A stretch of DNA of 64,000 nt, taken from assembly GCF_000422265.1 (NCBI RefSeq), contig NZ_KE383812.1:124001-188000 (forward strand), given 5' to 3'. A model generated the notes under the pieces. The model saw only the letters and a program-made list of their open reading frames with translations. It did not search any database and was not told the origin of the DNA. Source of the DNA: Kaistella palustris DSM 21579. GTDB lineage: Bacteria; Bacteroidota; Bacteroidia; Flavobacteriales; Weeksellaceae. The position numbers were made by a program, and so were the translations under genes. Position 1 is the first letter of the stretch; each line of letters opens with the position of its first letter. Shown here piece after piece: positions 39,112 to 42,583 of this stretch.

Positions 39112-39119
39112 TACTTTTG
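39112..39119 (+). promoter_or_regulatory. -7 promoter element TACTTTTG of the tolC remnant
   Basis: A perfect TAnnTTTG lies 18 nt before the probable TTG start at 39138. A TTTG at 39082-39085 is 26 nt upstream, slightly beyond the usual spacing. The promoter of the lost efflux operon seems to survive. Confidence 0.45.
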
Positions 39120-39137
39120 TCATCAAATAATTTACAC

Positions 39138-39869
39138 TTGAAAAAAGTATTATTTCTCCTTTTTATTTCTACAAAATTTTTCGGGCAAGACACCATTCAA
39201 ATTTCTAAAAAAGATTTAGAATCCAGAATTGAAGGTCAAAACCTCTCCGTAAAATTAGCGAATGATGAAGTGAATTCTGCGCAAGCCGGTTTATTGCAAA
39301 CCCGCGCGATGTATTTGCCAAACGTCACCGCGTCCTACACGGGAACTGCGACCAACAGTCCTTTAATAGCATTTGGCACAAAACTCAACCAATCCAGAAT
39401 TACGATGATGGATTTTATGATGATGATCCCTATTCCACTTTCGTTGGTTGGAATTGTACTCGGACACTGGTTATTAGGCGCTTTCTTTACGGCAATATCC
39501 TTTATCGGAATGATTGCTTTAGCCGGAATTATGGTGCGAAACTCGATTCTTATAATTGACTTTATTGAAATCCGTTTGAAAGAAGGAGCACCAATAAAAC
39601 GCGCAATTATTGAAGCCGGAGCAGTCAGAACTACACCGATTCTATTAACAACTGGAGCAGTGGTGATTGGCGCAGTGGTGATTTTATTCGACCCGATTTT
39701 CCAGGGATTGGCAATTTCATTGGTATTTGGAGCTATCGTTTCTACGCTTTTGACTTTGATCGTGATTCCACTGATTTATTATATGTCTGAAAAGAAAAAA
39801 TGGACACACAACGAACCTGCGGTCATCGAAGCAGAATCTGTTTCAATTGAAGAAGATCTTCAAGATTAA
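39138..39869 (+). pseudogene. in-frame TolC-RND fusion remnant of an efflux operon
   Basis: The frame joins parts of two unrelated proteins. From a probable TTG start (LKKVLFLLFISTKFFGQ) to about codon 93 it is the signal peptide and first helices of a TolC-family outer-membrane channel (SAQAGLLQTRAMYLPNVTAS). From MIPIPLSLVGIVLGHWLLG to the end it is the last three membrane helices and tail of an RND pump (GIMVRNSILIIDFIEIRLKEG). The rest of TolC, the whole periplasmic adaptor and most of the pump are missing, some 5 kb by usual gene sizes. The junction lies near 39400-39425, where GATGATG occurs on both sides. It cannot work as a channel or pump. Confidence 0.85.
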
Positions 39870-39882
39870 TTAATACAAAAAA

Positions 39883-39975
39883 TTTGTCATTCCGCAGTTT
39901 GTCACGCTGAAAGCGTCTATGCGTTGAGATTGACTTCGTCGAACCACTTCGTTAGGTTTCCTCCGGAATGACAAA
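39883..39975. repeat. 93-bp element with 12-bp terminal inverted repeats
   Basis: It opens with TTTGTCATTCCG (39883-39894) and closes with CGGAATGACAAA (39964-39975). Inside is the small hairpin ACGCTGAAAGCGT. The ends match the 50-bp palindromes at 40645 and in the array at 41.2 kb. The right end contains the ATG that opens the next frame. Confidence 0.85.
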
Positions 39976-40306
39976 TTCTAATCTAAATAAACAACTAATT
40001 ATAAAATTATTACTCATCCCCGCAATCAAGGAATTTGAAAGCGAAGTCAAAAATATTTTGGTAAAATCAGGAGTAAAATCTTTTACCTACAATGTGGCAA
40101 AAGGTTTCAAAAATGACGCTCAAAGCAACGCAGTCAATAATTGGTTTGCTTCTTCTTATGCAGAAACAGACTCCTTACTATTCACTGTTTTTGTACCGGA
40201 AGAAAACACGCCTTTAATTATTAAAAAAATTGAGTAAATCAATTCAGGAAAAGAAACATTATCCAAAGTGCACATTGCTTTGATCAATTCGGAACAGCAA
40301 TTTTAA
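39968..40306 (+). pseudogene. P-II-like small protein, interrupted by an in-frame stop
   Basis: The first 89 codons (IIKLLLIPAIKEFESEVKNI through LIIKKIE) resemble the small P-II/DUF3240-like proteins encoded after RND pump genes. A TAA at 40235-40237 ends the frame, but the same frame continues with a plausible C-terminus, INSGKETLSKVHIALINSEQQF, to a second TAA at 40304-40306. This looks like a nonsense mutation. Its ATG lies inside the terminal inverted repeat of the adjoining 93-bp element, so the original start may have been replaced. Probably non-functional. Confidence 0.65.
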
Positions 40307-40331: not shown

Positions 40332-40538
40332 ATGAAAACCAGAATAAAACACGCTTTTGCGGGAACAATGATTTTGACAAGTACCCTTCTGTCCATTTAC
40401 GTCAGCCAAAATTGGTTGTGGCTGACGGGATTTGTAGGAATTAATTTACTACAATCTTCGATAACGAATTGGTGTCTGTTGGATAAAATCTTAGGAAAAC
40501 TGGGAGTTCGTAATGAAGGTAATTCTTGTGAAGTTTAA
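40332..40538 (+). CDS. DUF2892 (YgaP-like) membrane protein
   Basis: A 68-residue protein with two membrane helices separated by a short turn: AGTMILTSTLLSIYVSQ and LWLTGFVGINLLQSSITNWCLLDKILGKLG, the DUF2892/YgaP C-terminal pattern. YgaP-type helices are often found with rhodaneses. Here it closes the Crp/Fnr-rhodanese-efflux module. It looks intact, unlike the two genes before it. Confidence 0.8.
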   Translation: MKTRIKHAFAGTMILTSTLLSIYVSQNWLWLTGFVGINLLQSSITNWCLLDKILGKLGVRNEGNSCEV

Positions 40539-40644: not shown

Positions 40645-40694
40645 TTTGTCATTCCGAAGGAATTTCTACGTAGAGACGCTTCCAGCGTGACAAA
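40645..40694. repeat. 50-bp palindromic element (type X)
   Basis: It begins TTTGTCA and ends TGACAAA. Between are three smaller palindromes: ATTCCGAAGGAAT, TCTACGTAGA and ACGCTTCCAGCGT. The same 50-bp design occurs four times in the array at 41.2-41.8 kb. Confidence 0.9.
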
Positions 40695-40716
40695 TATGGT
40701 GGTTTTGTAACGGTAA

Positions 40717-40737
40717 TTGTCATTCCGAAGGAATCTC
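40717..40737. repeat. left half of the palindromic element
   Basis: TTGTCATTCCGAAGGAATCTC matches the left half of the 50-bp element. The right half is missing. Confidence 0.8.
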
Positions 40738-40757
40738 TGCACTATCAATAAATCCTT

Positions 40758-41084
40758 TTATCCTTCCGTAGGAATCTCAAAATGCCAATTCAAGAATTTT
40801 AAGTCAGGATTTAAACTTTTAATCAGATCTAATTTTAATTCTCTTCGTAAATCTTTGATTTCTTTTTCTCTTGCAATAGCAAGTTGAATCCAGCCAAAAT
40901 GTTCATAGTAAATTAGAAACTCAACATTATATCGAGCAGTAAAACTTTTTGGATTCTTTTTTTCTCGATGTTCTTTCAACCTTCGTCTGATATCGTTTGT
41001 AACGCCTGTGTATAAAACGGTCCTGTTTCTATTGGTTAAAATGTAAACGTAGAAATCATAAATCCCTTCTGTAAATTCAATCAT
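40758..41084 (-). CDS. single-domain GIY-YIG nuclease ending inside a repeat
   Basis: A 108-residue protein of the small GIY-YIG (URI domain, COG2827) group: YVYILTNRNRTVLYTGVTND with the paired tyrosines, RRRLKEHRE with the catalytic arginine, and a glutamate further on (AIAREKEIKDLRR). These enzymes cut DNA, but the role of stand-alone copies is unclear. The last six codons and stop (EIPTEG) are read from 40758-40778, which matches the repeat half at 40717-40737 at 18 of 21 positions. Palindromic repeats lie on both sides of the gene. Confidence 0.85.
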   Translation of the reverse strand: MIEFTEGIYDFYVYILTNRNRTVLYTGVTNDIRRRLKEHREKKNPKSFTARYNVEFLIYYEHFGWIQLAIAREKEIKDLRRELKLDLIKSLNPDLKFLNWHFEIPTEG

Positions 41085-41196
41085 GGAAATGTGTTTTTAC
41101 TAAATTAATAAATTACAGTTTACTTTCAATTATTTTATCACCAATAGTTCTTTAGTTTACTCTTTATTGATATGTCAAATCCTTCTGACGCATGCT

Positions 41197-41793
41197 TTTG
41201 TCATTCCGGAGGAATCTCTACACGGAAACGATTCCAGCGTGACAAAAATAGTGGCTTCTTGACGATCATTTGTCATTCTGAAAGAATCTCTTCGTCGGTT
41301 GTGTATGTGTGTGAGACGCTTCCAGCGTGACAAACTTTGTGGAAACTAATTATTCAATGCTACATTCGTCATTCCGGAGGGATCTCTACGCCGAAGTGAT
41401 TCCAGCGTGACAAAAATAGTGGCTTCCTGATGATCATTTGTCATTCTGAAAGAATCTCTTCGTCGGTTGTGTATGTGTGTGAGACGCTTCCAGCGTGACA
41501 AACTTTGTGGAAACTAATTATTCAATGCTACATTCGTCATTCCGGAGGAATCTCTACGCGGAAACGATTCCAGCGTGACAAAAATAGTGGCTTCCTGATG
41601 ATCGTTTGTCATTCTGAAAGAATCTCTTCGTCGGTTGTGTATGTGTGTGAAATGCTTCCAGCGTGACAAACTTTGTGCAAACTAATTATTCAGTGCTACA
41701 TTGGTCATTCCGGAGGAATCTCTACGTAAAAACGCTTGCAACGTGACAAAAATGGTGGCTTTTGACGACCATTTGTCATTCTGAAAGAATCTC
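41197..41793. repeat. 168-bp tandem array of paired palindromes, 3.5 copies
   Basis: Units start at 41197, 41365, 41533 and 41701, exactly 168 bp apart. Each full unit holds a 50-bp element X (for example 41197-41246, ending CCAGCGTGACAAA) and a 66-bp element Y (41269-41334), which starts TTTGTCATTCTGAAAGAAT and ends GCTTCCAGCGTGACAAA. The fourth unit keeps X but only the left part of Y (41772-41793). Copies differ by a few substitutions. There is no reading frame of note. Confidence 0.93.
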
Positions 41794-41908: not shown

Positions 41909-42583
41909 ATGAATTTCCATGATCTCTTCCTGACACCTTACGAATCTTACGAACCATATCAGATTGTTCTGGAAGCAATCGCGACGATATTCGGTATTTT
42001 AAGCGTTTATTTTTCCATTAAAAAAAACATCTGGGTTTATCCGACAGGAATTATTTCAACGGCACTTTACGTTTACATTCTTTTTAATTTCGGTTTGCTC
42101 GGCGACATGATGATCAACTTCTATTACACCGTGATGAGCATCTACGGCTGGATTCTTTGGTCGAAAAGTTCCGAAGACCACATTCACGTTGAAGTTTCCT
42201 GGGCGACAAGAAAAGAATGGATCTTCGCCGGAGTTTTATTTCTCGTAAGTTTAATTTTAGTCACTGTAGTGTATTATTATAAACCATTTATCGACAATCA
42301 TTTCGCAATGGAAAACGTCAGGCTTGGCCTGTACCATTTGGATTGGGCGAATTGGCTGGATGTTTTCACCACTGCAATTTTCCTGGTCGGAATGTGGTTG
42401 ATGGCAAAACGGAAGATCGAGAACTGGATTTTCTGGATCCTGGGTGACCTGATCTGCATTCCCATGATGATCTATAAAGGCTTGGGGATCACCTCTATAC
42501 AATATCTCGTGTTTACCGCGATGGCTGTTGCCGGCTATATCGAATGGAAAAAGAGTGCTCAACCTCACCATGTTACACCGTAG
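41909..42583 (+). CDS. pnuC: PnuC-type nicotinamide riboside transporter
   Basis: A 224-residue inner-membrane protein with about seven helices. The N-terminal IFGILSVYFSIKKNIWVYPTG and later INFYYTVMSIYGWILW are characteristic of PnuC (SWEET-like fold), which admits nicotinamide riboside for NAD salvage by facilitated diffusion. No NadR-type kinase gene is next to it. It looks like a single-gene unit. Confidence 0.9.
   Translation: MNFHDLFLTPYESYEPYQIVLEAIATIFGILSVYFSIKKNIWVYPTGIISTALYVYILFNFGLLGDMMINFYYTVMSIYGWILWSKSSEDHIHVEVSWATRKEWIFAGVLFLVSLILVTVVYYYKPFIDNHFAMENVRLGLYHLDWANWLDVFTTAIFLVGMWLMAKRKIENWIFWILGDLICIPMMIYKGLGITSIQYLVFTAMAVAGYIEWKKSAQPHHVTP

What the first reader, a model, noticed from the sequence alone, without database searches (positions are those of the whole stretch)
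40645..41793. GIY-YIG nuclease gene embedded in, and terminated by, a family of palindromic repeats
A stand-alone GIY-YIG gene (40758-41084) sits between a 50-bp palindrome and a repeat half on one side and a palindrome array on the other. Its own last six codons and stop are a repeat half, matching the half at 40717-40737 at 18 of 21 positions. Every repeat carries the same hairpin arms (ATTCC..GGAAT and ACGCT..AGCGT) and TTTGTCA/TGACAAA ends. REP elements and the RAYT transposases (Y1 family) that mobilise them are a known parallel. A GIY-YIG enzyme in that role would be new as far as I know. Seen: the layout and the match. Inferred: that the nuclease acts on the repeat.
Basis: partly seen in the sequence, partly recalled or inferred. 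Interest (0 to 1): 0.68.

Follow-up and report, generated by a model that had tools for sequence, protein, structure and literature searches.

The report
DNA-cutting enzyme with matching hairpin repeats
A small DNA-cutting gene sits inside a cluster of short hairpin-forming repeats; the same pairing, with repeats that change in step with the enzyme, recurs across many bacteria, so the enzyme very probably acts on these repeats and may be the missing partner of a known class of bacterial palindromes.

Summary
A 108-aa GIY-YIG gene lies inside TGTC-tagged hairpin repeats; only 17 matches exist in the 2.98-Mb genome and 12 lie within 1 kb of the gene. Its last codons and stop overlap a decayed repeat half.

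The link is general. In 74 relatives from many phyla, upstream and downstream flanks share a repeat in 81%, versus 2.7% of control intervals. The repeat stem tracks the enzyme tree, also within one genus, and stems are compensated around a fixed TGTCA…GNA…TC frame. In 197 family genomes, gene carriers have more repeats (p = 5e-5, stratified by genus). RAYT-type Y1 genes of this genome lie elsewhere.

Best reading: a sequence-specific GIY-YIG nuclease and its cognate single-strand hairpin site, working like the Ssn nuclease/repeat pair of Neisseria (recalled; paper not held) and parallel to RAYT/REP. The repeats resemble 'CGTC-tagged REPs', for which a 2013 survey found no enzyme. Cutting and mobilisation were not tested.

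So association and specificity are supported; 'GIY-YIG in place of RAYT' is plausible but unproven. The window locus is a new member of a known kind. A second GIY-YIG group, sitting in tRNA-derived hairpin repeats, was found in passing.

The parts
40758..41084 (-). stand-alone GIY-YIG nuclease gene (108 aa)
   Evidence: PF01541 E=1.9e-16; dN/dS 0.05-0.11; AF2 pLDDT 89.8, best PDB fold match UPF0213 1zg2, then Slx1; Y14, Y25, R35, H39, E73 invariant in 41 relatives
40758..40778 (+). decayed repeat half that supplies the gene's last six codons and stop
   Evidence: 18/21 to 40717-40737; orthologue G003 has the intact GAGATTCCTACGGAATGACAAA with TGA as stop
40717..40737 (+). repeat half, TGTC-ATTCC-GAA-GGAAT-CTC
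40645..40694 (.). 50-bp dimer: two TGTC-tagged hairpins (ATTCC/GGAAT and ACGCT/AGCGT), tags outward
   Evidence: folds as single-stranded DNA into an outer stem with two GNA-loop hairpins
39883..39977 (.). outlying repeat cluster (halves at 39883-39897, 39898-39923, 39950-39975)
41197..41793 (.). tandem array of a ~168-bp unit made of two dimers (for example 41197-41246 and 41269-41334), about 3.5 units
   Evidence: D1/D2 families at 168-nt spacing; halves listed
40332..40538 (+). left neighbour, YgaP-like TM protein (PF11127); left edge of the acquired block
   Evidence: in G004 this gene and the NMN transporter gene are separated by 183 bp with no gene or repeat
41909..42583 (+). right neighbour, nicotinamide mononucleotide transporter (PnuC, PF04973)
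   Evidence: locus shared by G000, G003, G030 and G064

Best explanation
The gene encodes a small site-specific GIY-YIG endonuclease, and the surrounding TGTC-tagged palindromes are its cognate sites. Shown: gene and repeat occur together, usually on both sides of the gene, in most relatives; each enzyme subgroup has its own stem sequence; the frame TGTCA-N4-GNA-N4-TC is fixed while the stem varies with compensation; the protein is under purifying selection. Inferred: the enzyme recognises one strand of the repeat folded as a GNA-loop DNA mini-hairpin, reading the constant tag and the variable stem together, and nicks at or next to the tag when the DNA is single-stranded (replication, repair, DNA uptake). 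Gene plus array then behaves as a compact self-targeting unit: nicking promotes local recombination and duplication (arrays at the gene, occasional dispersal), and repeats outlive the gene when it decays. It works like Ssn with its repeat in Neisseria. Whether the net effect is repeat propagation or control of incoming ssDNA is left open.
For: Own genome: 12 of 17 repeat matches lie within 1 kb of the gene. Genus: the orthologue clade sits at a repeat cluster, e.g. G023 with 32 copies all within 352-360 kb around the gene at 357.8 kb. Repeat-blind test in 74 relatives: flanks share a repeat in 81% vs 2.7%. Tagged hairpins within 500 bp: 92/99 vs 21%; same stem on both sides 57/99 vs 0.6%. Against ordinary ORFs in the same contigs: 35/62 vs 1/372. 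Stem label on the enzyme tree: 41 changes vs 62.3+-2.0 shuffled; within the genus 9 vs 14.4+-0.7, no shuffle as low in either. Copy number: p=5e-5 stratified by genus. Frame motif: 132 hits in 453 kb (3.5 expected, 2 for the reversed motif), 118 fully paired, 7 distinct perfectly paired stems. Three-nt loops are GNA in 47/52; CGNAG present in 178/314 hairpins vs 53 shuffled. dN/dS 0.05-0.11.
Against: No biochemistry; cutting, strand preference and cut site are all inferred. 38% of genomes without the gene (same-clade threshold E<=1e-28) still hold repeat copies, up to 50, so repeats persist or are served by other paralogues. 12 to 19% of relatives fail the flank test, depending on the score cut-off. 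The DNA hairpin of a single half is only marginally stable by nearest-neighbour parameters (-1.3 to -3.9 kcal/mol). Stem labels were assigned automatically by majority, and the enzyme tree has few columns; within Flavobacterium alone the signal is weak.
Confidence: 0.76

Rival explanations
1. RAYT-like mobilisation: the GIY-YIG enzyme is the dedicated enzyme that copies or moves these repeats around the genome, filling for CGTC/TGTC-tagged REPs the role that Y1 transposases fill for GTAG REPs.
For: CGTC-tagged REPs were reported to lack a dedicated transposase (PMC3733652); gene-carrying genomes have more copies within genera; copies reach 61-69 per genome in some carriers; arrays at the gene.
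Against: In the window's genome only five matches at three sites lie away from the locus, one of them weak, so little dispersal has occurred; the gene stayed at one locus through several species; GIY-YIG enzymes hydrolyse DNA and no joining activity is known to me for them; no fresh insertion with a clean empty site was demonstrated for a solitary repeat.
Confidence: 0.3
2. Free-standing homing endonuclease parked in its own target: the gene interrupts a repeat dimer, spreads into repeat sites by cut and repair, and is protected by having split its site.
For: Gene between outward-tagged repeat halves in the commonest configuration (31 of 74 pairs), clearest in the second GIY-YIG gene of this genome, sandwiched in an inverted pair; clade members found at several unrelated loci.
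Against: Orientation of flanking halves is not fixed (31/19/15/9); intact sites remain right next to the gene, so it does not protect itself by removing sites; no recent gene copies at dispersed repeat sites in this genome.
Confidence: 0.2
3. Structure-specific housekeeping nuclease (Slx1-like) that resolves cruciforms extruded by the repeats, without sequence specificity.
For: Next-best PDB fold matches are Slx1; the 50-bp element folds into a branched structure as single-stranded DNA.
Against: Repeat stem co-varies with enzyme subgroup within one genus and the TGTCA tag and GNA loop are constant, which a structure-only enzyme would not demand.
Confidence: 0.1
4. Coincidence: repeat-rich intergenic DNA and small mobile genes share the same niche, and the repeats are moved by the Y1 transposases present in the genome.
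For: Y1 transposase genes are present in 30 of 36 genomes of the genus, three in G000.
Against: None of the three is near a repeat site; ordinary ORFs in the same contigs do not show the pattern (1/372 versus 35/62); enzyme and stem co-vary.
Confidence: 0.03

Closest known systems
Ssn nuclease family and its repeat NTS in Neisseria (own knowledge: Chenal, Veyrier and colleagues, Nat Commun 2025; not in the held library)
   Same: Small stand-alone GIY-YIG nuclease; cognate tagged palindromic repeat in many copies; homologues with differing specificities. Neisserial dRS3 is classed as a CGTC-1 REP (PMC3733652), a layout like the one here.
   Different: Here copies are few and clustered at the gene, a repeat half has become the end of the coding sequence, and the hairpin has a 5-bp stem with a 3-nt GNA loop. 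ssDNA cleavage is untested here.
CGTC-tagged REP superfamily (Di Nocera et al. 2013, PMC3733652)
   Same: Unpaired CGTC/TGTC tag, stem usually beginning AT, short loop, short unpaired tail, head-to-head dimers.
   Different: Stem 5 bp and loop 3 nt instead of 8-9 bp and 4-5 nt; tail CTC rather than CCA; the survey reports no associated enzyme, here a GIY-YIG gene is embedded.
REP / RAYT (REPtron)
   Same: Single nuclease gene flanked by its hairpin repeats with an unpaired four-base tag; ssDNA hairpin as likely substrate.
   Different: RAYT is an HUH/Y1 transposase and the tag is GTAG; here a GIY-YIG hydrolase and TGTC. No Y1 gene lies at the locus.
UPF0213 / YhbQ-like GIY-YIG proteins (1zg2, 1ywl)
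   Same: Fold and catalytic residues.
   Different: No repeat association is recorded for the solved members as far as I know; not tested here.

Membership tests
GIY-YIG superfamily, UPF0213-like | GIY-YIG domain with catalytic Tyr, Tyr, Arg, Glu | tested here: met
   PF01541 E=1.9e-16; Y14, Y25, R35, H39, E73 invariant in 41 sequences; fold match 1zg2
Ssn nuclease / cognate repeat pair | small stand-alone GIY-YIG gene with a cognate tagged repeat in the same genome | tested here: met
Ssn nuclease / cognate repeat pair | sequence-specific cleavage of single-stranded DNA at the repeat | not testable with these tools
   needs purified protein
Ssn nuclease / cognate repeat pair | sequence homology to Neisseria Ssn | not tested
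   no Neisseria Ssn sequence was fetched; both are assigned to GIY-YIG, the closer relation rests on memory
CGTC-tagged REPs | unpaired CGTC (or TGTC) at one end, stem starting with AT | tested here: met
   all halves at the window locus but the decayed one carry TGTC or CGTC; frame confirmed without a pairing requirement, 132 hits vs 3.5 expected. One of the two arms of each dimer begins AC, not AT
CGTC-tagged REPs | stem of 8-9 bp, loop 4-5 nt, tail CCA | tested here: not met
   stem 5 bp, loop 3 nt (GNA), tail CTC; consensus from PMC3733652. So not filed as a member of the four described families, only as resembling the superfamily
REP/RAYT (REPtron) | Y1/HUH transposase flanked by the repeats | tested here: not met
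   Y1 genes of G000 lie at C5:69145, C7:42385 and C4:260516, away from the repeats; the embedded gene is GIY-YIG
REP/RAYT (REPtron) | GTAG tag | tested here: not met
   tag is TGTC
Homing endonuclease | gene inserted in, and spreading to, its own cleavage site | tested here: inconclusive
   gene lies among the repeats and clade members occur at several loci across genera, but flanking orientation is mixed

The most novel reading that the evidence does not exclude
Small GIY-YIG nucleases are the long-missing dedicated enzymes of CGTC/TGTC-tagged palindromic repeats across bacteria, forming a RAYT-independent class of repeat-propagating systems; one branch uses hairpins derived from tRNA genes, with a palindrome in place of the anticodon arm.
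Probability: 0.35. Interest if true: 0.82.

Novelty: new member of a known kind. Interest (0 to 1): 0.6.

Why it matters
A 2013 survey of tagged bacterial palindromes ended with the CGTC class having no known enzyme (PMC3733652). The co-occurrence, adjacency and stem co-variation shown here across many lineages point to small GIY-YIG nucleases as that enzyme and give dozens of natural enzyme/site pairs with different specificities. That makes the question directly testable, offers a source of site-specific nucleases, and explains why these widely annotated small genes of unknown role sit in repeat clusters.

Tried and rejected
Rfam over the window gave no match. The Ssn paper could not be found or read. 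No held paper was found that links GIY-YIG to CGTC REPs, to flanking repeats in Bacteroidetes or to tRNA-derived repeats. NCBIfam has no model over its cut-off for this protein. Considered and rejected: RAYT/Y1 as the enzyme for these repeats in this genome; coincidence of niche. An attempt to see a strict orientation rule for the flanking halves failed: mixed 31/19/15/9. Within Flavobacterium alone the stem/tree association was weak (6 changes versus 7.6, 11 of 300 shuffles as low, 14 rows). The empty site in G004 shows absence of gene and repeats but is not a sister strain, so the exact insertion borders and polarity were not resolved.

Full report
What is there. The window holds a 108-aa GIY-YIG gene on the minus strand (40758-41084; PF01541 E=1.9e-16) between a YgaP-like TM gene and a PnuC-type transporter gene. 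On its 3' side lie a 50-bp dimer of two hairpins (40645-40694) and a repeat half (40717-40737); on its 5' side an array of a ~168-bp unit (41197-41793). The last six codons and stop overlap a repeat half that matches 40717-40737 at 18/21. A further cluster at 39883-39977 had been missed. The halves fit TGTC - 5-bp stem - 3-nt loop - 5-bp stem - C/T tail, some with one stem mismatch. Chance is excluded. Genome-wide there are 17 matches to one half, 12 of them within 1 kb of this gene, and none for the reversed pattern (the notebook's '14' was a miscount).

The stop codon in the repeat. The orthologue in G003 (93% identical) ends ...GAGATTCCTACGGAATGACAAA: the TGA of the intact repeat is the stop. 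G064 (87%) also stops at the TGA of a ...CAGAATGACA repeat end. The window copy is a decayed version (GGAAGGATAA) that runs one codon further. Stop-in-repeat occurs in 6 of 106 relatives by exact hairpin search, so it is best seen as a side effect of the repeat lying about 20 nt past the gene (median 22 nt), not a rule.

Is the association general? Relatives were fetched by protein similarity only. In a repeat-blind test, the 400 bp upstream and downstream of the gene share a local match (score >=36) in 60/74 genes and in 30/1110 size-matched intervals from the same contigs. Tagged hairpins occur within 500 bp in 92/99 genes against 21% of 982 control intervals; the same stem appears on both sides in 57/99 against 0.6%. 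Against ordinary ORFs in the same contigs the both-sides figure is 35/62 versus 1/372. Hosts include Bacteroidota, Ignavibacteria, Chloroflexi, Fibrobacter, Verrucomicrobia and candidate phyla, by record title. In the window's own genome all five short GIY-YIG genes over the cut-off (the sixth is a 626-aa ORF, presumably UvrC) lie among repeats of several kinds.

Does the repeat follow the enzyme? The stem differs by enzyme subgroup: ATTCC/ACGCT for the window clade, ACTCC/ACTCT for its 56-62% relatives G005, G017, G031 and G032, ATTCT for a second group, ATTGC for a third. On the enzyme tree the label needs 41 changes against 62.3+-2.0 after shuffling, and within the single genus 9 against 14.4+-0.7, with no shuffle as low. 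Within Flavobacterium alone the signal is weak. Without asking for pairing, the frame TGTCA-N4-GNA-N4-TC has 132 hits in 453 kb of genus sequence around these genes (3.5 expected, 2 for the reversed motif); 118 are fully paired, with seven distinct perfectly paired stems. So tag, loop and tail are constant and the stem varies with compensation.

Copy number. In 197 genomes of the family, 30 carry the clade's gene (median 12 copies) and 167 do not (median 0); permutation within genera gives p=5e-5. Yet 38% of gene-less genomes have copies, up to 50. Repeats therefore persist without this gene or are served by paralogues. G030 carries a broken copy of the gene with its repeats still in place.

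History. The gene is at the PnuC locus in G000, G003, G030 and G064, the last a different genus; in G004 the two neighbours are 183 bp apart with neither gene nor repeat. Clade members in other genera lie at several other loci. dN/dS is 0.11, 0.07 and 0.05 in three comparisons, so the protein is maintained. The AF2 model (pLDDT 89.8) matches UPF0213 1zg2 first and Slx1 next.

Mechanism. Of 52 hairpins with a three-base loop, 47 have GNA; CGNAG occurs in 178 of 314 hairpins against 53 after shuffling. From established knowledge, d(GNA) loops closed by C-G make unusually stable DNA mini-hairpins; PMC10527192 describes that hairpin class and its stability. This argues for recognition of folded single-stranded DNA, although nearest-neighbour energies of single halves are small. 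I infer that the enzyme reads tag plus stem on a single strand and nicks near the tag. Arrays at the gene would follow from repeated nicking and unequal repair. This step was not tested.

Known parallels. CGTC-tagged REPs share the tag (CGTC or TGTC), the AT-initiated stem and head-to-head dimers, and were said to lack a dedicated enzyme; neisserial dRS3 is one of them (PMC3733652). The window repeat has a shorter stem and loop and another tail, so it resembles that superfamily without fitting its four described families. From memory, Ssn is a GIY-YIG nuclease of Neisseria specific for single-stranded DNA at a repeat present in hundreds of copies, with many homologues of other specificities. 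I could not read that paper here. If the memory is right, the window locus is a new member of that kind; the statistics here extend the pairing and connect it with the CGTC REP class. RAYT membership is excluded for this locus: the gene is not Y1, the tag is not GTAG, and the three Y1 genes of the genome lie elsewhere.

A second kind, seen in passing. Another GIY-YIG group sits mostly 50-70 bp downstream of tRNA genes (Arg-TCT, Val-GAC, Ala-GGC, Asp-GTC, Met-CAT). It is followed by partial tRNA copies in which the anticodon arm is replaced by a palindrome, and in the cases read its stop codon TAG is the D-loop TAG of the tRNA copy. In the window's genome it is at C1:198825-199070, outside the window. 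This mirrors the stop-in-repeat of the window gene and deserves its own study.

Noticed in passing
G000:C1:198825-199070 (L003, L253; L112); relatives L254-L295: A second small GIY-YIG group lies directly downstream of tRNA genes and is followed by partial tRNA copies whose anticodon arm is replaced by a palindrome (for example CCCGATTTTTAATCGGG); the gene's stop TAG is the tRNA D-loop TAG, and units occur in tandem in G089, G104 and G044. No paper was found.
   Followed up: partly
G000:C5:266-268 kb (L005, L113): Tandem ~450-bp units, each a 3' fragment of tRNA-Met with altered anticodon arm, a terminator and a GIY-YIG gene (one intact, one largely replaced by other DNA, one decayed).
   Followed up: partly
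G000:C7:149519-149749 (L004): Another GIY-YIG gene tightly sandwiched in an inverted repeat pair TGTCATTCTGAACGGAGCAAAGCGAAGTGAAGAATCT / near reverse complement.
   Followed up: partly
G000:C4:112086-112304 (L001, L111): A GIY-YIG gene flanked on both sides by a different palindrome family, CTGAGCGGAGCCGAAG.
   Followed up: no
window 39117-39869: Chimeric ORF: an outer-membrane-protein-like start (TolC-like by eye) fused in frame to the C-terminal end of an AcrB-type transporter (PF00873, model positions 890-1019). It looks like the scar of a deletion; G030 has a 1081-aa ORF in its matching region.
   Followed up: partly
G170:C1:1677053-1678719; G183:C1:807674-808124; window 41197-41793: Repeat arrays with a similar unit of about 164-172 bp in different genomes and genera, one of them about 85 kb from the clade's gene. 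The near-constant period is unexplained.
   Followed up: no
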